From positions 54,384,321 to 54,448,320 of the forward strand of contig OY997640.1 of the NCBI GenBank assembly GCA_963921795.1: DNA of 64,000 bases, written 5' to 3'. Made by a program: the position numbers and the translations under genes. Positions within the stretch are counted from its first letter, which is position 1. The number at the start of each line of letters is the position of its first letter. Positions 1-63,260 of this stretch are shown piece after piece. The DNA comes from Nannobrachium achirus (Eukaryota; Chordata; Actinopteri; Myctophiformes; Myctophidae). A model generated the notes under the pieces. That model searched no databases. It saw only the letters and a program-made list of their open reading frames with translations, and had not been told where the DNA came from.

Positions 1-57
1 GCACAGACACAGACACATATGAACCCTAGCATCCTTACTCTGGGCTGAGCGTTCAGT

Positions 58-131
58 GAAAATAGCAGATCTACAACCTCACAACGGTGAGCTATTTTCT
101 ATGAATGTACGCGTTGTGAGCTTATGGATCA
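58..131. repeat. Hairpin module copy 1
   Basis: Left arm GAAAATAGCAGATCTACAAC and right arm GCGTTGTGAGCTTATGGATC, with a partly duplicated inner segment. Lies directly next to a LINE reverse-transcriptase fragment. Confidence 0.6.
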
Positions 132-310
132 ACTATATGTTCGGCAAACAATATTTTGTATAAAGGGATCAAAAGTAGAGGGCCTGGTATAGACCCCTGG
201 GGGACCCCAGTCAGCAATGTATATATTGTTAAATGCTTAACTATGCTACCTTTATGACAATGAATCTGATTTGCTTGCTGCCAATAGAGTGAACCCTGAC
301 TCCCAATGCC
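130..310 (-). mobile_element. LINE reverse-transcriptase fragment
   Basis: The minus strand reads LLTGVPQGSIPGPLLLIPLY, the conserved RT block (GVPQGSxLGPLLF) of non-LTR retrotransposons. Only this block is readable, so it is a decayed, truncated copy. Confidence 0.6.
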
Positions 311-4472: not shown

Positions 4473-4494
4473 GTGAAAATAGCAGATCTACAAG

Positions 4495-4579
<85 letters not shown>

Positions 4580-4580
4580 G

Positions 4581-4611
<31 letters not shown>

Positions 4612-4613
4612 AT
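4473..4613. repeat. Hairpin arm running into (CA)n
   Basis: A single hairpin arm (AAATAGCAGATCTACAAGTT CACA) passes directly into about 58 CA units, interrupted by an alternating CG block at 4576-4589. The Z-DNA potential is high. Confidence 0.8.
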
Positions 4614-5164
4614 ATAGATTGACTATTTTCTTTAAGAATACAGGTGTGCCATGAGATTTTGACTTGGTCACAGAATGTTTGAAAACCAGTAGAGTAAAGG
4701 ACAAAGGAGTGGAGAGACTGATATATACTTACTGTTTCTGGATGAGACAAGAAGGATCATTATGGGCTTCAACATTTTACGAGGAGTGGAATGTTGCAAC
4801 AACACTTTTAAATATATGCTATATCCCTTCCAAAAATGCTAATTATTGAAATTGTGCTCAGATGCACTATATTTTCAATTAAATCCATCAAGACTTGGAA
4901 CAAGTGAACTGGAAAGCATTCAATGTTTCATTCAAGAACACTTTCACATGCAGGGCACTTGGGTGTTGTGAGATTTTAACCTGTGACCTTAGCCACTCTG
5001 CAACTATAGCAAAGTACCCATGTGTCAATTTAAACCTGAGAGTGTAAAGATTAAAAAAAAAAAAAAATACAGAGTCATTACTCTGTAATATATGATTTTA
5101 GCTTTTGGTCATTTTCAATTGAATGAAAAGCAGCTGACATAAAGACTTACTGAAACAGCAGAAC
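4614..5164. other. No gene seen
   Basis: AT-rich, with an A run at 5053-5066. No feature recognised. Confidence 0.45.
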
Positions 5165-22384: not shown

Positions 22385-22570
22385 TCAGCATTCACAATCA
22401 TATCCCAGTGAAGAAGCTGAGCTTGATATGTACAGTACTTTGTTGACCGGGGTCACCCAGGGGTCTATACTTGGTCCCAAGCCTTTTCCCTTTACACCAA
22501 TGTCTTTGCCGGAAATAGACGATCTACAAGCTTGTGTTGAGTGCTTAGAGATTAGCTATTTTCCCCTAAT
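22385..22570 (+). mobile_element. LINE reverse-transcriptase fragment with hairpin-like copy
   Basis: Reads YSTLLTGVTQGSILGPKPF, the RT block of non-LTR elements. About 45 nt on, 22511-22565 (GAAATAGACGATCTACAAGC ... AGATTAGCTATTTTCC) resembles a diverged hairpin module, at the same relative place as in the fragment at 130-310. Confidence 0.5.
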
Positions 22571-22913
22571 GTTTGCCTGTAATGTCATGTCCAGAAAAGG
22601 GATGCCCCGGTCCATTTGGTTAAGGCAGTGGGCAATATTGCGTATTAACTTACATTTCCACTTCCAGCAACTTCTTCAGGGACTCAAACCGGTGACTTTC
22701 TGGTCACAAGCCTGCTTCTCGGTAGCATGCCCTTCACTGTTCCAACCACAAATGTCATTAAATAAATGACATTGGTCGCAGAGGAAATTCCCTTGAGTTA
22801 TTGTGAGGCAGCAGTGGCATTTGAAAGGATAGTTCACAGGACTGCACGTCCTATTGAATATTTTATTGCTTTTTGTACTATCTTTAGTGTCAAGTGTTCC
22901 CAAACTTCCCAGT

Positions 22914-24695: not shown

Positions 24696-25081
24696 TAGGG
24701 ATGGGACATGAAAATTATATGAAATTTGATATCACGATTATTGTGACAAAAGAAATCGCGATTTAGGTTATTATCGTGATAATCAAAATCCATTTTCCTG
24801 GGGCGGAACATTTGCCAAAAAATTGCCGATCGGCTATTTTTTGGGCAGACATTTGATAGAGTTTGGAAAAAAAGACTGTCAAGTACGTACCGTATATAAA
24901 GTACCTTTTAACAATAGAGGGTTTAAGTGGTACCGGATATGCAGCTCTGCAAATAAAAGGTCAATTGATCCCAGTGCATGACGGAGGACGATTATCACGA
25001 TAAATTAAATCTCCACGATACGATTAATGTGAGAGTTTTTTATCACGATAAACGACAATATCACTTATCATCCCGTCTCTA
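24696..25081. mobile_element. hAT-like MITE, family D
   Basis: 8-bp duplications GTTAATTA (24688-24695, 25082-25089) flank TAGGGATGGGACATG ... CATCCCGTCTCTA. The interior holds ATTATCGTGATAATC and a collapsed hairpin core (GCCGATCGGCTATTTTTT, near 24823-24842). Sister copy at 50275-50656. Confidence 0.85.
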
Positions 25082-25089
25082 GTTAATTA

Positions 25090-27138
25090 GTAGACTTTTA
25101 TTCATGTTAGCCCCCAGTATTATTTATCTTGGTGTATATTTAATTGATTAATACAAAGGGACTCCCACAGGTGTTGTCCCAATATCAGCAGCTGTATATA
25201 GTAAACACACATCTGTAATGTGGAAGAAGCTTTGTAAAATGGTGGTGATGCCCAAAGACAGACAGTGGTGTGGAAGACCTTTGCCCTAGTACACACCAAC
25301 GGGTATTACGGGCAGTGATGATGATGATTGTAAAATGGCAGCCATGGTCTGTCCAAATAAACTACATCGATCTTAGGCCTGTTACAGTATGTAGTAAAAG
25401 ACGAAGGAGCCAGTGTTCCTGAGCGTTTCGTAGAAATCTTCTGCAAATGTGTATGTAGTGTGTGATGATGATTCATGGGTAATGGTGGATAATTGCTTCT
25501 GTGAACAGCTCCATGGATCAATAGGAGGCAGTGGAGAGGCAGGGAAATGGGCTCGCTCCCAGGCCAACATTTGTCATCTCATTCACTATTCCATCTTGAT
25601 CCTGGCCAGAGTCATACTAGTCATGGACATTCTGGGTCACTGCATTCAGAGATGTGCTAGCCTTAATAGCCTTATTATTCTACTGTGTTCATTGGTTGTT
25701 GTTGTGATGTCATGCCATTAATATAGTTTATTTCATTAAGTCATTTTCTAGTTTATCTATGACCATTTCTTCATATACAATAACATATAACTTCACTAGT
25801 TTAGACTTTGTTTAAAATCATGCTTGCCAACAATATACATTTTACATTGTTTACCCCTCAACATGCGGTTCCAGTGTGGGTTTGATTAAATGTTGTGTTC
25901 ATGATATATGGCATTCTTTGTAAGAAATTACAGACAGTATCAAAACCCTGTTTGAAACACATTGCCACACGACTTCCGAGATAATTTGTACTTAATTTGG
26001 AGAAAGAAAAAAAGAAAACGTTTCTACAACAAACAGTGACATTTACTGCTCCTGTGAGGCAATTTGTGACAATAACTGGCATTCTTTATAAAATAGATCC
26101 CACCAGCACATTTTGGAAGGCTATTATAGCCAATCAGAATAGATTTAAATCCTCACCTACCTGGAAAATTTACCACCCCATATGATTGACCACGTGTAGT
26201 ATGCCTTTCCCCACCCCTTTAATAATAATATTCTTAATAATATTATATATTACCACGAAAAGTGCCACAATGGCAAAGACGGTATCTCTCTCTCTCAAAA
26301 AATAAAAAGAACACATTTTTCTTTTCAACAATTTATTATTATTTTTGTATTGTTTTGTTTTTAGTTCTGTATGTCAAGTCAATTTAATTTATTTCATGAT
26401 TTGAATTTTTATTTTTCCCTACTTTTAAGTGTATGTTACATGTATGTCAATGTTTACTATGTGTACTGTTTGTATATTGTCTTCTGTGTTTGTGTGTCAA
26501 AAAATGGAAAAAACCCCAAAAAAAAAATATAAAAAAAAAAAAAAAAAGAATAGATTTAAATCTAAAACGACCTGGTATAGCAGGTATATACAATCTGGTA
26601 AAGTAAAATTAACGCTGAGGCGTTGTGTGCTTGTAGATCTGCTGTTTACACTACTTTTGTGCGACGGCCTTGTACGATGAAGCAGGGCTTTACTTTGCGA
26701 AAGAACATACAAATTTGAAACTTGGAGATTCAAGGTTTCCACCTGACAACGACGATATGTGAAAAGGACATGCATTGTGTGCTGGCTTTTTCCTCACTTT
26801 CATGACATTATTGAGCCGTGCACCTTAAAACTTGAGTGTTGCTGTCCTTCTGCTTTGCAGTCATTTCTCTTAAAAGTAAATTGTTACCTTGTGTTTACCA
26901 GTGATAAAATCCGACCTTCTCATATGGTTTGAAAATAAGATGTGAACTGACCTACTGAGGAATTTGTTCGGTGAAAGTTCAGAGAAATTAGTGTATTTAA
27001 TTCTAAACATATTTGGATGGAGTGTATTCCTTGGCCTACTGTGCATGAAAAGGTTGCTGATCTGTCCAGCAGTTTCCAAGATTAGCTGACAGACAGACAG
27101 ACACACAGACACAGGTACAATGGCGAAAACATCTAAAC
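25090..27138. other. No gene seen
   Basis: AT-rich, with an A run at 26519-26547. No exon, repeat family or strong hairpin recognised. Confidence 0.4.
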
Positions 27139-27290
27139 CAGGGGTCTTCAACAGGGGGTCCGGGACCCCTAGGGGTCCTCAGAGTTACTACATGGGGGCC
27201 GCCAAATCTTTATGTGATAGGATAATTATTTTAAATTAACAACTTTAACCCTCGCATCCCTAATCTGAGAGATCTGCTATTTTCAAACAT
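27139..27290 (+). mobile_element. hAT-like MITE family A, left part only
   Basis: CAGGGGTCTTCAACAGGGGG and GACCCCTAGGGGTCCTCAGA, then a hairpin half-arm (AGATCTGCTATTTTC) at 27270-27286. It is cut short by the next element. Confidence 0.75.
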
Positions 27291-27459
27291 TTAGTACTTT
27301 TACTTTTGGAACTTTAAGTACATTTTGATGCCAATAATTTCATACTTTTACTCAAGTACATTTTGAATTCTGGACATTTACTTGTAATGGAGTACATCTA
27401 CAGTGCAGTATTGATACTTTTACTTAAGTACAAAATGTGAGTACTTTTTACACCTCTGC
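27290..27459 (+). mobile_element. hAT-like fragment (TAAGTAC-rich)
   Basis: Repeated ACTTTTACT/AAGTACATTTTG units ending GTACTTTTTACACCTCTG, the right end of a common teleost element type. The left end is absent. Confidence 0.45.
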
Positions 27460-27904: not shown

Positions 27905-28372
27905 TGCTATTGAAAAATAGCAGATATACAAGCTCACAGAGTGCCGCGCTGCAAGCTTGTAGATCTGCTATTTTTGAAGTCGTGAAAGTTTGTGCAAATC
28001 TTTGAAAATATGTATTTTTTTTAAGCAAACATTTGTAACTAAAATTTTGCTTCTGGGGCGTCCGTGGAACTAAATATTTTGAGATGGGGGTCCGTGGTGA
28101 AATACATATCATTTTGGGGGTCCTTCACATGAAAAGGTTTGAGCACCACTGACATAGAAACATAGGTTTTTCAAAAAACCTTAGAAGGGTTTTAAATATT
28201 CAAAGACTTGCACAAATGTTCACGATTTTTCAAAAATAGCAGATCTATAAGCTCACATCATTTCATATCTCTCATTGTGTAGCAGGTGAAATAATAGTGA
28301 ATTTAAACTGGACATCCGGAACCCTCTGAAGGACCCCTGGGGGTCCCTGGACCCACTTTGAGAACCACTGCA
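27905..28372. mobile_element. hAT-like family C remnants with hairpin
   Basis: The hairpin at 27910-27978 is intact (TAGCAGATATACAAGCTCAC ... CAAGCTTGTAGATCTGCTAT). Two right ends (GTTTGAGCACCACTG at 28150, TTTGAGAACCACTG at 28372) bracket TTGCACAAATGTTCACG and a lone hairpin arm at 28228-28257. Rearranged copies. Confidence 0.65.
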
Positions 28373-30090: not shown

Positions 30091-30101
30091 AGGCTCTAGA
30101 A

Positions 30102-30514
30102 CAGGGGTCTTCAACAGGGGGTCCGGGACCCCTAGGGGGTCCTCAGTGTTACTACAGGGGGGCCGCCAAATCCTTGTGTGATAGGATAATTATTTTAAAT
30201 GAACAACTTGAACCCTCGCATCCCTATGAGGAGAACTTATGCCCAAAATAGCAGATTAGAACGGCTATTTTTGGCAAATAGGTTTGGTGTAGAGGTAAAC
30301 AAGAGCAGACCAAGTATAGAGTGAAAGGTCAAGTTTACTAAGTATCGACGATTTAAGATTCTAAGTGGTTAAGTGTCAAACAAGTCTGTGAATCTATCTA
30401 TGAAATCGATGAGAATCTCCATCACACATTTATACAATATGTAGAGGGGTCCCTCCCTGCTTCATCTCCCTCTCAGCTAAGGGGTCCTTGGCCTGAAAAT
30501 GTTGAAGACCCCTG
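30102..30514 (+). mobile_element. hAT-like MITE, family A
   Basis: Perfect 8-bp duplications CTCTAGAA (30094-30101, 30515-30522) flank CAGGGGTCTTCAACAGGGGG ... GTTGAAGACCCCTG. The hairpin module is collapsed to AAAATAGCAGAT...GGCTATTTTT at 30243-30272. 413 bp, non-coding. Confidence 0.9.
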
Positions 30515-34268: not shown

Positions 34269-34422
34269 TTACTGTAATGCAGGGGTCTTCAACAGGGGGT
34301 CCGGGACCCCTAGGGGGTCTTCAGAGTTACTACAGGGGGTCCTCCAAATCTTTCAGTGATAGAAAAAAAAAAATCTACTTTTTTATAACCACTTGAACCC
34401 TAGCCAAAGAGAACTTTAGACA

Positions 34423-34493
34423 AAAATAGCCGATCTACAAGCTCACAACGCCTCGCGCTGCGAGGCGTTGTGAGCTTGTAGATCGGCTATTTT
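34423..34493. repeat. Hairpin module, perfect reference copy
   Basis: 34-nt arms with no mismatch (34423-34456 and 34460-34493) and a 3-nt loop. The arm begins AAAATAGCCGATCTACAAGC, continues TCACAACG and ends CCTCGC. Confidence 0.95.
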
Positions 34494-34563
34494 CAGCAAA
34501 GAGCTTTGGTGTATAGGGTAAAAAGAGCAGACTAAGTACAGAGTGAGAGGTCAAGTTTATTAA

Positions 34564-35241
34564 CTCATCTGGTGCCGATCCCGAACTAGTTCGGCTTTAT
34601 TTCAATCCAATACAATCTTTTTTTTATTAATTCACTTACCCCGAGCTGCTTGTAGAGTCGTGGGTGGTCCTGGCTCGCTAGCCGCTAGCCAGTTAGCCAT
34701 TCTACTCTGTCCGACGATATATTCCATTAAAAATGGTTTAAAATACATTTTTGAGCTCCCCAATGTTCACCCGATGTTCGGCGCCGCTTCCGATGAGTAC
34801 ACGAGTGTGCCGATCCCGAAGTAGTTCGGCTTTATTTAATTAAATGAATAAAATGATAAGAGGCCTTCTGAAGCCTGGCTTGATTTTTGTAGCTACTAGC
34901 CGAAAGCTAACAACGTCCCGGCCGGCCGTAATTTGCGAACGCAATCGCCAATCTCCGCCTAATCCAATGAAGGACCGCATCTTTAAAGGCTTATATCTCT
35001 TTTTTGTGTTTTTGGAAAGCGGCACGAGGTTTATTTACGGCGAAATCGCCCAAAAATGATCTTTTAGATGACAAAATGGGAATAGCCATTCTGTTAGCAT
35101 CTTCATCCGGGACATTTCCATGCAGTGCATCAACGTGAGCACGTCAGGTCCTGGAAGCTGAAGTCCTGGAAGCTAAAGCGCTCGCCTATGAGAGATGCGC
35201 TGGCATTCTTTGGCCCCTAGAGGGCGCTGGCACGCAAAGAG
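34564..35241. mobile_element. piggyBac-like TTAA element nested in hAT MITE
   Basis: TTAA at 34560-34563 and 35242-35245 with ends CTCATCTGGTGCCGATCC and, reversed, CTCTTTGCGTGCCAGCGCC. The uninterrupted sister hAT copy at 30102 shows the host sequence without it. No transposase recognised. Confidence 0.65.
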
Positions 35242-35423
35242 TTAAGCATTAACAGTTCAAGTGGTTAAATATATTAAAACACAAATTGACATGAATCCAA
35301 AATACACTGATGATTGTGCTGTCAAACGATTAAACTATGAAAAGGTTGTGGGGGTCCCTGCTTCATCTCTCTCTCAACTAAGGGGTCCTTGGCCTGAAAA
35401 CGTTGAAGACCCCTGCTGTAATG

Positions 35424-36262: not shown

Positions 36263-37035
36263 GAGAGAGGGCGAGATCATTTAGCGACCTACAACCGGGT
36301 CGCGACGTGGTCGGTAGTTTTCAGCGACCGGGTCGCTAACTCGACCGACTGGGACGGTAAAACCACCGACCGGGAAGCTAGAACCACCGACCGGGACGCT
36401 AAAACCACCGACCGGGTCGCTAAATCGACCGACCGGGACGCTAAAACCACCGACCGGGACGCTAAAACCACCGACCGGGAAGCTAATTCCACCGACCGGG
36501 ACGCTAATTCCACCGACCGGGACGCTAATCCAGCGACCGGGTAGGTAAATCCACCGACCGGTGGTCGCTTCCACCGACCACCGGGCTACTAACCCTAACC
36601 CTAACCCTAACCCTAACCCTAACCCTAAACCTAACCTCAGTAACCTTACCTCAGTTAGGCTAACCTGCCACGCAACCTCCCGACCGGGTCGCTAAATCAC
36701 CGACCGGGTCGCTAAATCACCGACCGCGTCGCTAAATCACCGACCGCGCCGCTAAAGCGAGCGACCGGGTCGCTAAATCGACCGACTGGGGCGCAAAATC
36801 TTCCGACCGGGTCACTAGATGTACCAACCGGGTCGCTAAATCTACCGACCTAAAACTGCAGGCAGGTCGGTAGATTTAGCGACCGGGTCGGTCGATTTAG
36901 CGGCGCGGTCGGTGATTTAGCGACCCGGTCGCTCGATTTAGCGACCCGGTCGCTCGATTTAGCGACCCGGTCGCTGAAAACTACCGACCACTTCGTGATC
37001 CGGTTGTAGGTCGCTAAATGATCTCGCTCCTACTG
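36263..37035. mobile_element. Foldback element filled with minisatellite and telomere-like DNA
   Basis: Inverted ends of at least 60 bp (GCGAGATCATTTAGCGACCT, then ACAACCGGRTCRCGAMGTGG) flanked by GATCTTTA at 36255-36262 and 37036-37043. That 8-bp duplication restores the R2 unit. Inside are tens of ACCGACCGGGACGCTAA-type units in both orientations and (CCCTAA)n at 36589-36632. hAT-like by duplication length. No coding capacity. Confidence 0.75.
36589..36632. repeat. Interstitial telomere-like repeat
   Basis: About six CCCTAA units between the two halves of the foldback element. Confidence 0.9.
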
Positions 37036-43789: not shown

Positions 43790-44119
43790 GATCTCAGGCA
43801 AAGGAACCGGAGGGAAAGGGGCAGAAGTAAGAAGAAAAGAGCCTTTTCAGAAGAGAAGGATCATGGGCGACCGTGGTGTTTGCAGCTATGTGTGACTACA
43901 TGATCAGGTGGGACTCTTCCATCTTGCCTCTGGGTCCCAGCAACTTCCCCTAAACACTGCCTTATCTGCTGACCTCCCCTCTCCTTTTCTCATCATGAGA
44001 AGATGTACCTGGTGCTGGGTGGGCAGTGAGCCCTCATACCGGTGCTGTCTCTGTGCTGCGTGAGAGCCCGCCTCCAACGCGCACTCCTCCTTCTCCCGGG
44101 CGGTCGGTTTTGGCCCAGA
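43790..44119 (+). promoter_or_regulatory. fbxo41 5' leader with four upstream ORFs
   Basis: A plausible acceptor (TTCTTCAG, ending 43789) precedes a purine-rich stretch that runs without an obvious boundary into the start codon at 44120. Four short upstream ORFs are visible: 43863-43895 (10 codons plus stop), 43900-43950, 43995-44063 and 44003-44029. All end before the main ATG. If all of this is in the mature leader, re-initiation or leaky scanning would be needed to reach the main start. A possible internal donor (CAG|GTGGGA near 43907) could shorten it. Exon boundaries are inferred. Confidence 0.5.
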
Positions 44120-44689
44120 ATGGCCTCTTTGGACCTGCCCTACCGCTGTCCTCGCTGCGGGGAGCACAAGCGCTTCCGGAGCCTGTCGTCCCTGCGTGCC
44201 CACCTGGAGTACAACCACACCTACGAGACACTCTACGTCCTCTCCAAGTCCAACAGCGTGTGTGACGCTGCCGCCCTGCTGCCTGCTTTAGTGGCTGAGG
44301 GAGCCGCCCTCCTCACCTCCCCGGCCGCCATTGGCAATAACAACGACCCGTTTGAGCCCCTGCGACCTTCCGCCACTTCGTTTTCTCGCTTTCCCTGCCG
44401 CGAGCTTCCCTGTCCGGACGAGCTGTGCTTGAACCCGGCAAACACCAACGCCGCTGCCCGGTACCTCCCCAACCTGGAGTTTCCCCTGGGGGAGATTCTA
44501 ATGAAGAAAGCAATGACGTCCACGGACCCCGGTCAAGCCGGTAACCCCAGCAGCACTGCCGTGGCGGTGGCTGCCAACGTAGCGGCCAGCGCGGTCGAGG
44601 CAGCTTATGAGGAAGGACTTGCCAGGCTGAAGGCAAGGGCGTTTGAACGCCTGGAGCTGGACGAGAGACTGGAGAAACTGTCCGAAGAG
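44120..44689 (+). CDS. fbxo41: F-box only protein 41, first coding exon
   Basis: Encodes residues 1-190. Residues 1-40 (MASLDLPYRCPRCGEHKRF...) match the FBXO41 N terminus and carry a C2H2 zinc finger with C10, C13, H28 and H33. The paralogue ZNF365 shares the finger but not this start. Residues about 45-165 are an Ala/Pro-rich linker, which is poorly conserved in the family. From about residue 170 (AYEEGLARLKARAFERLELD) the coiled coil begins. The start ATG is the first in frame and has A at -3 and G at +4. The exon ends after codon GAG at a weak donor (GTGATT, 44690), phase 0. Known for the family: a neuronal F-box protein acting as an SCF ubiquitin-ligase substrate receptor. The F-box itself is not in this window. 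A TTAA-flanked MITE begins 66 bp past the donor. Confidence 0.94.
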
Positions 44690-44755
44690 GTGATTATTTT
44701 ATTATGTTTAGTGGAAATGCCTTTCAGCTGTAAATACATCTTTACCTTATCTTAA

Positions 44756-46364: not shown

Positions 46365-46813
46365 CAGTGGTTCTCAACCTTTTCAGGCCGCGACCCCCAA
46401 AATAATCATATTTTAACTGGGGACCCCCCCCCCACACACACCCTGACGAGCACTATGAATTGAGGCATTACATTTTGTATGACACGGTTATGTGAAAATA
46501 GCAAATCTACTTGCTCACAACGCCTCGCGTTGCGTAGCGTTGTGTGCATGTTTATGGGCTATTTTCACAATTTCAGCCTCTGATATTTTACAATTTGGCC
46601 AATGTTTGATTTGTCATTTTAGAGGTATTAAAAAGTCCTTAAATTGTCACTTTAGAAATGTGCAGATACCCTCTATACACTTAAACTTGTTGTTGGTTTG
46701 TTTACTGTTGAGTGAGAAAACAATGTTGCACATTGAGTTAATCATCTGGGGACCCCCCAAAATAATTTGGCGACCCCCCCTGAGGGTCCCGACTCACAAA
46801 TTGAGAACCACTG
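46365..46813 (+). mobile_element. hAT-like MITE family B, behind exon 2
   Basis: Perfect 8-bp duplications ATTTACAT (46357-46364, 46814-46821). Ends CAGTGGTTCTCAACCTTTTC and AAATTGAGAACCACTG. Carries a hairpin copy at 46492-46568. Confidence 0.9.
46492..46568. repeat. Hairpin module copy
   Basis: GTGAAAATAGCAAATCTACT ... TATGGGCTATTTTCAC with core CGCCTCGCGTTGCGTAGCG. A few arm mismatches. Confidence 0.85.
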
Positions 46814-49041: not shown

Positions 49042-49315
49042 CAGTGGTTCTCAACCTTTTCAGACTGTGACCCCCAAAATAATCATATTTTAACTGGGGA
49101 CCCCCCCCCCCCCATCCTGACGAGTACTAAGAGTTGAGGAATAAAATGTTGTATAACACGGTTCAATTGTGAAAAATGGCCGATCTACATGCTCACAACG
49201 CCTCGCGTTGCGAGTGAGAAAACAATGTTGCACATTAAGTTAATCATCTGGGGACCCCCCAAAATAATTTGGTGACCCCCCCTGGGGGTCCCGACCCACA
49301 GGTTGAGAACCACTG
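49042..49315 (+). mobile_element. hAT-like MITE family B
   Basis: 8-bp duplications GCCTATTA and GCCTGTTA (49034-49041, 49316-49323; one mismatch). Ends CAGTGGTTCTCAACCTTTTC and GGTTGAGAACCACTG. Hairpin left arm and core remain at 49169-49215. The right arm is deleted. Confidence 0.85.
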
Positions 49316-49922: not shown

Positions 49923-50055
49923 CCCATTTAGACCGGGTATGCATTATTGTGTATTATTATTTGATGCTTTAACTATTAAAAAAATAGCAGATATACAAGC
50001 TCACAGTGCGGCACTCATAGTTAAATCATTAAATAATTCTAGGCCTAAATGGATT
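49923..50055. mobile_element. Small TTAA MITE (piggyBac-like)
   Basis: TTAA at 49919-49922 and 50056-50059 with ends CCCATTTAGACC and, reversed, AATCCATTTAGGCC. Contains a hairpin left arm (49978-50017) in the family C context TTTGATGCTTTAACTATT. Confidence 0.55.
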
Positions 50056-50274: not shown

Positions 50275-50656
50275 TAGGGATGGGACGATATGAACATCAC
50301 GATTATTGCGATATACGATATTATCGCAATAATCAAAATCCATTATCTTGGGGCGGAACATAAAAAAAAAAAAAAAGCTGATTGCGACGCATTGTGAGCT
50401 TGTAGATCGGCTATTTTTTGGCAAAGACATTTGATAGAGAGTGAAAAAGAACTGTATCAAGTACGTATATTAGGTACTTTTTACCAATTATAGAGGGTTT
50501 AAGTGGTACCGGATATGCAGCTCGGCAAATAAAAGGTGAATTGATCCCTGTGCATGACGGAGGACGATATCACGATAAATTCAATCTCCACGATACGATT
50601 ATTGTGAGTGTTTTTTATCACGATAAACGATAATATCGCGTATCGTCCCATCCCTA
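50275..50656. mobile_element. hAT-like MITE, family D
   Basis: Perfect 8-bp duplications CTTTGCTG (50267-50274, 50657-50664). Ends TAGGGATGGGACGATATGAA and ATCGTCCCATCCCTA. A hairpin right arm (TTGTGAGCTTGTAGATCGGC) is kept at 50384-50420. The left arm is replaced by an A run. Confidence 0.9.
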
Positions 50657-51400: not shown

Positions 51401-51410
51401 AAGAAAGGAA

Positions 51411-51474
51411 CTGATCTACAAGCTCACAACCCTGTTGCCTTGCAACACGCTGTGAGCTTTTAGATATGCTATTA
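51411..51474. repeat. Hairpin module copy in unknown context
   Basis: CTGATCTACAAGCTCACAAC ... GCTGTGAGCTTTTAGATATG CTATTA, with core CTTGCAAC. The flanking element was not identified. Confidence 0.75.
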
Positions 51475-51540
51475 TCTGTATGTTTGAAAATAGATGTTTT
51501 TGTTATCAGTTAAATAAAAATAAATAAACTGTAAATGTAC

Positions 51541-56639: not shown

Positions 56640-57610
56640 CCTCCACCGGCTGTCCGTCCGTCAGTCAGTGAGTGAGTCACACGTCACACGTCACACTTTT
56701 GCCCTGCTCATATCTCCACAACCGTTGCCCCCATCCATGCCAAATTTTGCACACACACTCCTTACCTGCCAAACTACAACCTCCAAGGACCCCCGGAGCT
56801 CCAGGGACCCCCAGGTCCCTGGGGGACCCCCAGGTGTAAAAAAATGTCCGTCCGTGAGTCACGTCACACGTCACACTTTTGCCCTGCTCATATCTCCACA
56901 ACCGTTGCCCCCATCCATGCCACATTTTGCACGCACACTCCTTACCTGCCAAACTACAACCTCCAAGGACCCCCGGAGCTACAGGTCCCTGGGGGACCCC
57001 CAGATGTAAAAAATGACCAAATGTGCAAAAATGACCAAATGACCACTCCAACGGGGCTGCTCACGGGGAATTCCCGGGGACCACCGACTCCTGGTGCTCC
57101 AGAACGGATGCAAAAGTGGTGGCGCCCCCAGTGGAGGACCCCCTACACTGCAGCTCACATAAAATGCCGTAACTCCGGCTAGGAGCGACCGGGAGAGCCG
57201 GGGCCGGTACCTATTCGTCCGCCTCGGCGGCGTGGAGACCCCACCCCTCATTTCTCACATGGCCCTCTTCTAGCGCCACCATGAGGCCGATTCTTGCAAA
57301 ACACATTTTTGGACACTGCTCCTAAAAATGTTGCCCTAAAATCACGCAAATCGGTACACAGTATGTCTACACTCATCCCATCAACATGAATCTGTCCCAT
57401 ATAGCGCCACCTTCAGGCCGATTTTTAAAAACACATTTTTGGACACTGCTCCTACAGATTTTGCCCTAAAATCACGAAAATCACTACACAGTATGTCTAC
57501 ACTCATGTCATCAACATGGATCAGGAAGATTTTGGAAAAACAAATTTTTGCCCTATTTGTGGAGATAAGCGACCTACGGTCGCTTATCTCCCGATTAGGG
57601 AGTCTTACTG
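56640..57610. repeat. Interspersed repeat R1 with internal tandem units
   Basis: Two tandem units of about 170-180 bp (56664-56846, 56847-57010) share CACTTTTGCCCTGCTCATAT and CCGGAGCT-CAGG segments. Then come two AGCGCCACC-type blocks. The 3' end holds a palindrome, GATAAGCGACCTACGGTCGC TTATC (57563-57587). Confidence 0.65.
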
Positions 57611-60772: not shown

Positions 60773-61086
60773 CAGTGGTTCTCAACCTGGGGGGGGGGGG
60801 GGGGGGGGGTGTGCAACACTGTTTAAGTGTATAGAGGGTATCTGCACATTTCTAAAGTGACAATTTAAGGACTTTTTAATACCTAACCCATATATAATAG
60901 AGGCAGAAATTGTGAAAATAGCCAATCTACATGCTCACAACGCCTCGCAACACATGTAGATCTGCTATTTTCACAATAGAACCATATACAAAATGTAATG
61001 CCTCAACTTTTAGTGCTCGTCAGGGTGGGGACCCCCCAAATATGAATATTCTGGGGGTCTCAGTCTGAAAAGGTTGAGAACCACTG
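60773..61086 (-). mobile_element. hAT-like MITE family B, behind exon 3
   Basis: Perfect 8-bp duplications TCTTAACG (60765-60772, 61087-61094). Ends CAGTGGTTCTCAACC and GGTTGAGAACCACTG. Orientation opposite to the copy behind exon 2. A G run at 60790-60808. Hairpin copy at 60912-60974. Confidence 0.9.
60912..60974. repeat. Hairpin module copy
   Basis: GTGAAAATAGCCAATCTACA ... GTAGATCTGCTATTTTCAC, core shortened to CGCCTCGCAACA. Confidence 0.85.
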
Positions 61087-61394: not shown

Positions 61395-61560
61395 CCAAAT
61401 GAACCCTAGGGCCACTATACTAGAGGGAACATTAGGCAAAAATAGCAACTCTCCAAGCATGCGATGCGATGTGAGTTCGTAGACTGGCTAAGAAATTAGT
61501 GTAGAGGGGAAAAAAAGAGTGGACCAAGTATAGAGTTAAGTGGTGGAGCACTCCACCTTC
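61395..61560 (+). mobile_element. hAT-like family A internal fragment with hairpin
   Basis: GAACCCTAGGGCC, ATTAGGCAAAAATAGCAACT and GGACCAAGTATAGAGTTAAG match the interior of 34280-34560. Diverged hairpin at 61437-61490. The termini are missing. Confidence 0.55.
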
Positions 61561-61738: not shown

Positions 61739-61807
61739 GTGAAAATAGCAGCTCTACAAGCTCATAACATATCATGATGCGACACGTTGTGAGCTTGTAG
61801 TTTTCAC
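61739..61807. repeat. Hairpin module copy in unknown context
   Basis: GTGAAAATAGCAGCTCTACA ... TTGTGAGCTTGTAGTTTTCAC, with core ACATATCATGATGCGACACG. Confidence 0.8.
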
Positions 61808-62289
61808 CATTTTCTTTTTTAATAATAATAAATAGGAACAGTTTACAACATACATGTCGAGGATTTACAGTTCATTATATCTTCCTCTTTCTCTTTATAT
61901 GCTTTGATTTAAAGAGAGTGGCCACTCCACTACGCTCTTCATAAACAGTGTTTTTGTCTTGTTGAGAAAGACGATGAGAGCAGAAAACAATGAGACAGAT
62001 TGCTCAGGTAACGTAGAGGGGAAAATACTTCATTGACTAGATTGGGTCCTAGGGAGCGGTGCATGAACACTTGGACACATAATGACAATGCTCCTTGAAC
62101 TGAAACTTTCAGGGCAGTTAATAGATCAAGAAGCTGTTCAAAGTAGCAATGCGTTTTGAATAATGCATCAGCATTGATTGTATAGAGTAACATGCCTCTG
62201 TAGTCCATCACCATACCAGAGCATAATGGACTTAATGAGACAACAGTTTTAATGGTAATGACGATATGTCAACCTTCAGAAACTAGTGT

Positions 62290-62989: not shown

Positions 62990-63260
62990 TTTGCTACTGG
63001 GGGTCCCTGGAACAACGTATTTTGAGATGGCGGTCCGTGACCAAATATCTATAATTTTGGGGGTCAAGTTTGAGAACCACTGATGACAGAAACATGAATC
63101 TTTCAAAAAACCTTTAGAAGACATTTATAGAATCGGGTCAATATATTCAAAGACTTGCACAAATTGTCATGATTTTTCAAAAATAGCAGATCTACAATAT
63201 CAGATCTATGGCACTCTGTGCCACGCTGTGAGCTTGTATATCTGCTATTTTTCACTAGTT
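62990..63260. mobile_element. hAT-like family C remnant with hairpin
   Basis: GGGGGTCCCTGGAAC, GATGGCGGTCCGTGACC and TTTGAGAACCACTG (63084), then CTTGCACAAATTGTCATG and a hairpin at 63176-63255 (ATAGCAGATCTACAATATCA ... TGTATATCTGCTATTTTTC). Context shared with 27.9-28.3 kb. Confidence 0.6.

What the first reader, a model, noticed from the sequence alone, without database searches (positions are those of the whole stretch)
34423..34493. A dispersed palindromic hairpin module inside unrelated transposon families
A hairpin with arms AAATAGCMGATCTACAAGCT CACA and a variable GC-rich core occurs about 18 times in 64 kb: near 58, 4473, 22511, 24823, 27270, 27910, 28228, 30243, 34423, 46492, 49169, 49978, 50384, 51411, 60912, 61437, 61739 and 63176. 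It lies in hAT families A, B, C and D, which differ in termini and interior, beside two LINE RT fragments, and in two places with no recognised host. Arms are kept as mirror images in several copies (34 bp perfect here), and others have lost one arm, as expected for an unstable palindrome. Either it is a minimal mobile palindrome (two inverted ends with almost nothing between) or a captured module that helps its hosts, for example through cruciform formation, folded RNA or replication. I know no named element with this sequence.
Basis: partly seen in the sequence, partly recalled or inferred. Interest (0 to 1): 0.8.

Follow-up and report, generated by a model that had tools for sequence, protein, structure and literature searches.

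The report
Palindrome shared by unrelated hAT transposons
A 69-base palindrome, present in very large numbers in this vertebrate genome, sits with sharp edges inside several otherwise unrelated short cut-and-paste transposons, so it may have been passed among them rather than inherited with them, and its two halves have tended to change together.

Summary
The perfect hairpin is at 34423-34493 (34-bp arms, 3-nt apex). The arm 24-mer occurs 90,515 times exactly in the window's own 1.66-Gb genome (reversed control 0); sampling suggests roughly 0.6 million copies. The shared unit is 69 bp. Identity between host families is mostly 0.82-0.94 in its 24-bp arms, lower in the core, and 0.24-0.33 beyond 3 bp outside. 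Hosts are non-autonomous hAT elements with 8-bp duplications and several terminus types; families A, A2, B and F share more than the hairpin.

A self-mobile palindrome is not supported: no target duplication was detected across families, its outermost bases vary, and no clean empty site was proven. Instead, flanking bases are mirrored in most families (not D), many family differences hit both arms, and one family shows its apex in both orientations and 180 collapsed against 6,489 full copies. This fits slow arm homogenisation and loss by template switching, on a domain captured by several hAT lineages. Recent copies show no mirrored changes. How it was captured, and whether it helps its hosts, is not shown. 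Common ancestry with strong constraint remains the main rival. New variant of a known kind.

The parts
34423..34493 (.). intact hairpin: 34-bp perfect arms, 3-nt apex
34280..35415 (+). host hAT element, family A; TIR CAGGGGTCTTCAAC; duplication CTGTAATG at 34272-34279 and 35416-35423
30102..30514 (+). family A element with degenerate hairpin at about 30243-30272; duplication CTCTAGAA
27139..27458 (+). chimera: family A left part (27132-27262 is 93% identical to 30095-30226), then a right half-arm (27270-27285) and a family G right flank (27270-27458, 88% to C1:143806-143999)
24696..25081 (+). family B hAT element, collapsed hairpin 24815-24844; TIR TAGGGATGGGAC; duplication GTTAATTA
   Evidence: found by eye; the scan did not list it
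50275..50656 (+). family B hAT element, one arm left at 50384-50418; duplication CTTTGCTG
46365..46813 (+). family C hAT element with full hairpin 46492-46568; TIR CAGTGGTTCTCAAC; duplication ATTTACAT
49042..49315 (+). family C element, left arm only (49173-49206); duplication GCCTATTA/GCCTGTTA
60773..61086 (-). family C element with shortened hairpin 60912-60974; duplication TCTTAACG
27911..27976 (.). family D hairpin (shortened core)
28231..28258 (+). family D single arm
49980..50016 (+). family D single arm
63178..63252 (.). family D hairpin
61739..61812 (.). family E hairpin, decayed right arm
56..136 (.). decayed hairpin with A/B-like right flank
22513..22563 (.). decayed hairpin with A/B-like flank
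4473..4630 (.). hairpin ends with a (CA)n microsatellite where the core would be
51403..51476 (.). hairpin with A-type left flank and an unmatched right flank
61437..61492 (.). decayed hairpin (ends approximate); flanks A-type on both sides by eye, left flank weakly by alignment

Best explanation
It is a 69-bp palindromic domain (24-bp outer arm, 9-bp inner arm, 3-nt apex, mirrored) carried inside several separate lineages of non-autonomous hAT transposons. SHOWN: hosts have hAT-type termini and 8-bp duplications; the domain is shared with sharp edges between hosts whose flanks do not align; no target duplication of its own was detected; its arms, and in most families the few bases outside them, carry mirrored family-specific changes; it collapses to arm stubs in place; two copies join different host halves at the hairpin. 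INFERRED: (1) it entered hosts by DNA-repair or replication template switching at the hairpin, as a fragment or by swapping element halves, not by transposition of its own; (2) it multiplied as a passenger of hAT cut-and-paste; (3) intrastrand template switching slowly homogenised the arms, extended them a few bases outwards and inverted the apex, while hairpin processing and slippage between short direct repeats deleted its centre.
For: Abundance. hAT hosts: 13 of 123 hairpin units (in 12 elements) lie inside an element with matching TIRs and 8-bp duplications, against 1 of 123 random positions; terminus types CAGGGGTCTTCAAC, CAGGGGTTTTCAAA, CAGSGCTACTCAAC, CAGTGGTTCTCAAC, TAGGGATGGGACGA and CAGGGACGTGCTGG. 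Sharp edges: in 13 flank families identity is mostly 0.82-0.94 in the 24-bp arms and 0.24-0.33 from 4 bp outside on. Unrelated flanks: of 190 cluster pairs three exceed the null maximum, A-right/B-right, B-right/the 58-22511 cluster and E-a/E2-a; profiles agree. Mirrored flanks: 3.03 mismatches in 8 between the two sides of a copy against 5.20 between families, 0 of 2000 derangements; inner 9 bp 1.87 against 3.09 in 13 families. Apex of family E in both orientations, 51 GGT and 11 ACC of 67 in register. Collapsed E copies 180 against 6,489 filled. Joins at the hairpin: window 27139-27458 and C1:442761. Template switching is known to homogenise inverted-repeat arms and invert spacers in yeast (PMC8604942: abstract and one results section) and to create and maintain hairpins (PMC8794818: abstract and start of the introduction).
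Against: In 67 in-register family E copies 58 arm changes (25 of the 33 pairs examined) were one-sided and 0 two-sided (0.46 expected), so homogenisation is not seen in recent single copies. Arm position 8 differs on one side in 7 of 13 families, which homogenisation should erase. Family D flanks are not mirrored. The two apex orientations could be two founders. Only two joins were seen; one could be a deletion between neighbouring elements, and in the other both halves are right flanks of related families. A sharply bounded constraint on an inherited hairpin would look similar to capture. No capture event was caught in the act. Arms were chosen by at most 5 mismatches, which inflates identity inside the block (not outside).
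Confidence: 0.5

Rival explanations
1. Common descent with constraint: all hosts come from one old hAT element that held the hairpin; flanks and termini diverged beyond recognition while the hairpin was kept, because pairing or sequence is needed.
For: A, A2, B and F share sequence beside the hairpin (partly by eye). A, A2, C, D and F termini look by eye like variants of one hAT type, and C-left and D-a profiles match weakly at their distal part (E 0.3, best shuffled 3.7). Arms are more alike than flanks even within a family (A 0.93 against 0.76, with a selection bias).
Against: B (TAGGGATGGGACGA) and E (CAGGGACGTGC) have different termini; flanks of A/B, C, D and E next to the hairpin do not align. 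Arm similarity does not follow host relationship: E and E2 share flanks (0.68) but their arms are 0.76 alike, while A and D share no flank (0.25) and are 0.89 alike (E2 is only 2 arms and may be decayed).
Confidence: 0.27
2. A self-mobile minimal palindrome (a very short terminal-inverted-repeat element) that inserted independently in each host.
For: Sharp edges. Several families with GTG...CAC ends are flanked by TA: 6 of 15 such flank clusters, not independent. Family D is flanked by TTCAA on both sides, and 39 of 100 listed collapsed D copies have the length of a join at that repeat (letters were not shown).
Against: No direct repeat stands out in 24 flank families (42 tests, largest z 2.2). 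The outermost bases vary (TCAC, TTGG, TCAA, TCGA and others), unlike transposase-bound ends. Flanks are mirrored instead in most families. The TTCAA, TAGT/AGT and ATT joins are equally expected from deletion between short direct repeats.
Confidence: 0.1
3. The hairpin is kept because it helps its hosts multiply or escape silencing (folded RNA, small RNAs, cruciform at replication), whatever its origin.
For: Of 25 repeat seeds with at least 5 copies in window plus random stretches, eight have an arm within 300 bp in more than half of their copies (12/12, 9/9, 7/8, 6/8, 6/7, 4/5, 4/5, 3/5), several of them from one family; random positions 0.186. In the same 25 pairs, 18 of 58 differences between 13 families are mirrored (my sum of the table: 18 mirrored, 37 one-sided, 3 other) against 0 of 58 within E, as if source copies were symmetrical.
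Against: The most frequent seed, 13 copies, has an arm near 1 of 13. In the random stretches alone only 1 of 5 complete hAT-like elements carries it. Slow homogenisation explains the contrast without selection. Rfam has no match in the window at gathering thresholds. No expression data.
Confidence: 0.13

Closest known systems
Angel, palindromic short inverted-repeat elements of zebrafish and other fish (Izsvak et al. 1999, recalled; described in PMC3636048, passages seen)
   Same: High-copy palindromic fish repeat with long inverted repeats that can form a stem-loop.
   Different: As recalled, Angel has other terminal sequences and is itself the element; here the palindrome is an interior domain of hAT elements, 69 bp, with no duplication of its own detected. 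The Angel consensus was not compared by any tool.
Non-autonomous hAT elements (MITE-like)
   Same: Hosts: TIRs, 8-bp duplications, mostly a few hundred bp.
   Different: Different families share one palindromic domain with sharp edges.
Highly conserved domains of SINEs, such as V, also found in the MITE MER6 (PMC6887750, abstract seen)
   Same: A short conserved domain shared by otherwise different non-autonomous elements and present in a DNA transposon.
   Different: Here the domain is a palindrome and the carriers found are DNA transposons.
Template-switch homogenisation of inverted repeats (PMC8604942, PMC8794818)
   Same: Mirrored changes in both arms, inverted short spacers.
   Different: Those reports concern yeast genes and RNA genes; here a repeat at very high copy number is concerned, and no recent mirrored change was seen in 67 copies.

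Membership tests
Non-autonomous hAT element (the hosts) | 8-bp target duplication next to matching TIRs | tested here: met
   Families A, A2, B, C, E, F; random control 1 of 123. Family D: hAT-like end TTTGAGAACCACTG seen, no complete copy found.
Non-autonomous hAT element (the hosts) | No transposase gene inside | tested here: inconclusive
   10 of the 12 complete hairpin-bearing elements are 274-706 bp, too short for a transposase; those of 1136 and 1332 bp were not scanned.
Self-mobile TIR element (the hairpin) | Fixed-length target duplication at the edges | tested here: not met
   42 combinations of length (2-5, 8, 9) and offset (0-6) in 24 flank families, none stands out.
Self-mobile TIR element (the hairpin) | Constant terminal bases | tested here: not met
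   Outermost bases differ between families.
Self-mobile TIR element (the hairpin) | Empty sites in hosts | tested here: inconclusive
   Collapsed copies mostly keep arm stubs or join at short direct repeats.
Angel | Sequence similarity to the Angel consensus | not tested
Known structured RNA family | Rfam match | tested here: not met
   0 matches in the window at gathering scores.
Template-switch-maintained inverted repeat | Arms of one copy more alike than arms of different families | tested here: met
   Outer 8 bp, 24-bp arm and inner 9 bp, each 0 of 2000 derangements at or below the observed mean.
Template-switch-maintained inverted repeat | Mirrored changes in recent single copies | tested here: not met
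   0 two-sided of 58 changes in 67 E copies, 25 pairs examined.

The most novel reading that the evidence does not exclude
The palindrome is a transferable amplification domain of hAT elements: a hairpin that moves between families by template switching at its own arms, works as a crossover point that re-pairs element halves into new families, and is kept symmetrical in source copies because symmetrical hairpins are the ones that multiply.
Probability: 0.12. Interest if true: 0.85.

Novelty: new variant of a known kind. Interest (0 to 1): 0.6.

Why it matters
How non-autonomous transposons acquire and exchange their interiors is, to my knowledge, poorly understood. A sharply bounded palindrome shared by several hAT lineages at very high copy number gives a natural experiment on domain capture, on concerted evolution of palindrome arms and on palindrome loss in a vertebrate, with thousands of comparable copies in at least one family.

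Tried and rejected
Self-insertion with a duplication: tested at 42 length-offset combinations, not found; TA-flanked termini looked promising but hold for 6 of 15 non-independent clusters. Clean empty sites: 55 joined flanks against the pool gave 10 junction-spanning hits, none a convincing empty site; the three E-family hits fall on one place that keeps a 13-bp remnant. An RNA family: none. Relatives elsewhere: exact 22-mer pattern in viral contigs and in prokaryote genomes, 0 hits; six 14-16-mers in the paper library, 0 papers. Topic searches of papers listed none that I recognised, from titles and abstract starts, as describing this palindrome; subscription papers and repeat libraries were not searchable. 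No other fish genome was available. The singleton flank clusters (26 of 123 units) were first taken as possible solo hairpins; at least one lies beside a repeat related to family D. The genome-wide test of mirrored against crossed outer ends is incomplete: mirrored GTG...CAC 11,081 places, control 0; the crossed and the GCC...GGC patterns and the exact D join did not complete.

Rows dropped: duplicate loci C1:81337 and the second C1:131698 copy were left out and of the identity profile, and C1:81337; still contain them. 25 of 92 pasted E strings were out of register and dropped.

Full report
What was checked. Arms at 34423-34456 and 34460-34493 are perfect over 34 bp around a 3-nt apex, and the strand folds at -44.5 kcal/mol (z -15.7). 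The window also has an unlisted copy at 26617-26651.

Scale. The window is part of a 1.66-Gb assembly. The 24-mer arm occurs exactly 45,676 + 44,839 = 90,515 times; the reversed pattern 0 times. In 20 arbitrarily placed 10-kb stretches (14,398 of 200,000 bases masked) there are 66 hairpin units, single or paired arms with at most 5 mismatches, in 185,602 readable bases; this extrapolates to about 590,000 units (bootstrap over stretches 402,000-806,000). The same sample holds 9 exact arms, which predicts 80,000, close to the count. Both 16-bp arm segments are exact and 0-30 bp apart at 22,608 places, control 0.

Anatomy. I pooled the window, the 20 stretches and the merged 30 loci (337,394 bases; the last part was chosen by the 24-mer). 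It holds 179 arms in 123 units, 56 of them paired; the reversed arm gave 0. The inner distance is exactly 21 bp in 25 of the 56 (my count from the list), so the canonical unit is 24 + 9 + 3 + 9 + 24 = 69 bp.

Hosts. A scan for matching 14-bp ends and 8-bp duplications places 13 of 123 units, in 12 elements, inside hAT-like elements, against 1 of 123 random positions. Terminus types are listed in the evidence. Of 17 such elements in the pool 12 carry arms; in window plus random stretches 6 of 11 (7 with the degenerate copy in 30102-30514), but in the random stretches alone 1 of 5. Family E: L011:6641-7198; F: C1:520522-521853, with two hairpins in inverted arrangement; A2: L025:1272-1699.

Are the hosts related? 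Flanks fall into 63 clusters. Profile searches find A-right and B-right homologous (best E 3e-6) and E-a with E2-a (best E 1e-9); the distal parts of E-a and E-b match each other; C-left and D-a match weakly in their distal part (E 0.3, best shuffled 3.7); other major family pairs do not clearly exceed shuffled controls. In anchored alignments of 20 cluster consensus flanks three of 190 pairs exceed the null maximum. A2 falls with A-right and F with A-left. By eye the left flanks of A, A2, B and F also correspond, but the A-left/B-left profile match is not significant (best E 0.8). Thus A, A2, B and F share a core of roughly 170 bp with different ends, whereas C, D, E and the A/B/F group share only the hairpin at this sensitivity. 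Identity between 13 flank families is mostly 0.82-0.94 in the 24-bp arms (0.67 around position 8), 0.53-0.76 in the inner arms, 0.28 at the apex, about 0.5 in the first 3 bp outside and 0.24-0.33 beyond.

Does it move by itself? Direct repeats at the edges do not stand out and the terminal bases vary. In E, anchors 0-30 bp apart give 98 + 82 = 180 copies against 3,290 + 3,199 = 6,489 at 67-97 bp, controls 0. Most listed collapsed copies keep stubs of the arms; 8 join at TAGT and 6 at AGT, direct repeats present on both sides. C has 140 and D 115 such copies; from coordinates, 39 of 100 listed D copies share one length, that of a join at TTCAA, and 11 of 100 C copies that of a join at ATT (the letters were withheld). 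These are products expected from slippage or end joining at an unstable palindrome; they equally resemble precise excision of an insertion, so polarity is not decided.

Arms change together. Within a copy the 8 bp outside the two arms differ at 3.03 positions, between families at 5.20; 24-bp arms 3.25 against 4.16; inner 9 bp 1.87 against 3.09; none of 2000 derangements reached the observed mean (one random copy per flank family; 24 families, 13 for the inner part, some of them single copies). The mirror effect is clearest at outside positions 2-5. Examples: ACATGC in both arms of C copies, AAACAGC and AGCACACA in both of E, GCGCGGCAC inner arms in D, CTCCAAGC-like changes in both of one H copy. 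D is an exception outside the arms (TTCAA on both sides as a direct repeat). Summing the table gives 21 mirrored, 54 one-sided and 3 other differences, or 18, 37 and 3 in pairs 9-33. In those pairs 67 in-register E copies show 58 one-sided and no two-sided change. So homogenisation acts slowly, or symmetrical copies found families. The E apex is GGT in 51 and ACC in 11 of 67, a spacer inversion or two founders.

Joins at the hairpin. Window 27132-27262 matches family A at 93% and, from 27270, the half-arm and right flank of family G at 88%; C1:442761 carries an A-right flank on one side (97% to another A copy) and an A2-type right flank on the other (87% to L025). The first may be a deletion between neighbours; the second is an inverted pairing of two related right halves.

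Arms against flanks. Arm identity is 0.88 between A-right and B-right (flanks 0.62), 0.89 between A-right and D-a (flanks 0.25), 0.76 between E-a and E2-a (flanks 0.68). It does not follow host relationship, but arms were selected by at most 5 mismatches and E2 has two arms only.

Verdict. A palindromic domain captured by, or exchanged among, several hAT lineages is the best-supported reading; capture itself is inferred. Literature: PMC8604942 (abstract and one section), PMC8794818 (abstract and start of the introduction), PMC6887750 (abstract), PMC3636048 (passages on Angel). The Angel paper of 1999 and its consensus are recalled only.

Noticed in passing
window 44030-44752 (+): Open frame with an FBXO41-type C2H2 zinc finger (PF23165, E 8e-21), so the window probably holds part of an fbxo41-like gene.
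   Followed up: no
window 4473-4630: A (CA)n microsatellite of over 100 bp lies where the hairpin core would be, as if the palindrome centre had seeded it.
   Followed up: no
L015 (C9:10000001-10010000): Ten hairpin units in 10 kb, several of them family D.
   Followed up: no
L039 (C1:442761-445784): TAACCC-like telomeric repeats close beside an element with two right halves joined at a hairpin.
   Followed up: no
window 57241-57360: The most frequent repeat seed found in window plus random stretches (13 copies) is not hairpin-associated: 1 of 13 near an arm.
   Followed up: no
window 36325-36975: 21-bp minisatellite blocks (CGACCGGGACGCTAAAACCAC, CCGACCGGGTCGCTAAATCGA and GGTCGGTCGATTTAGCGACCC), apparently in opposite orientations.
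   Followed up: no
C1:520522-521853 (L044/L045): A 1332-bp hAT-like element (F) whose two halves, each with a hairpin, are in inverted arrangement.
   Followed up: partly
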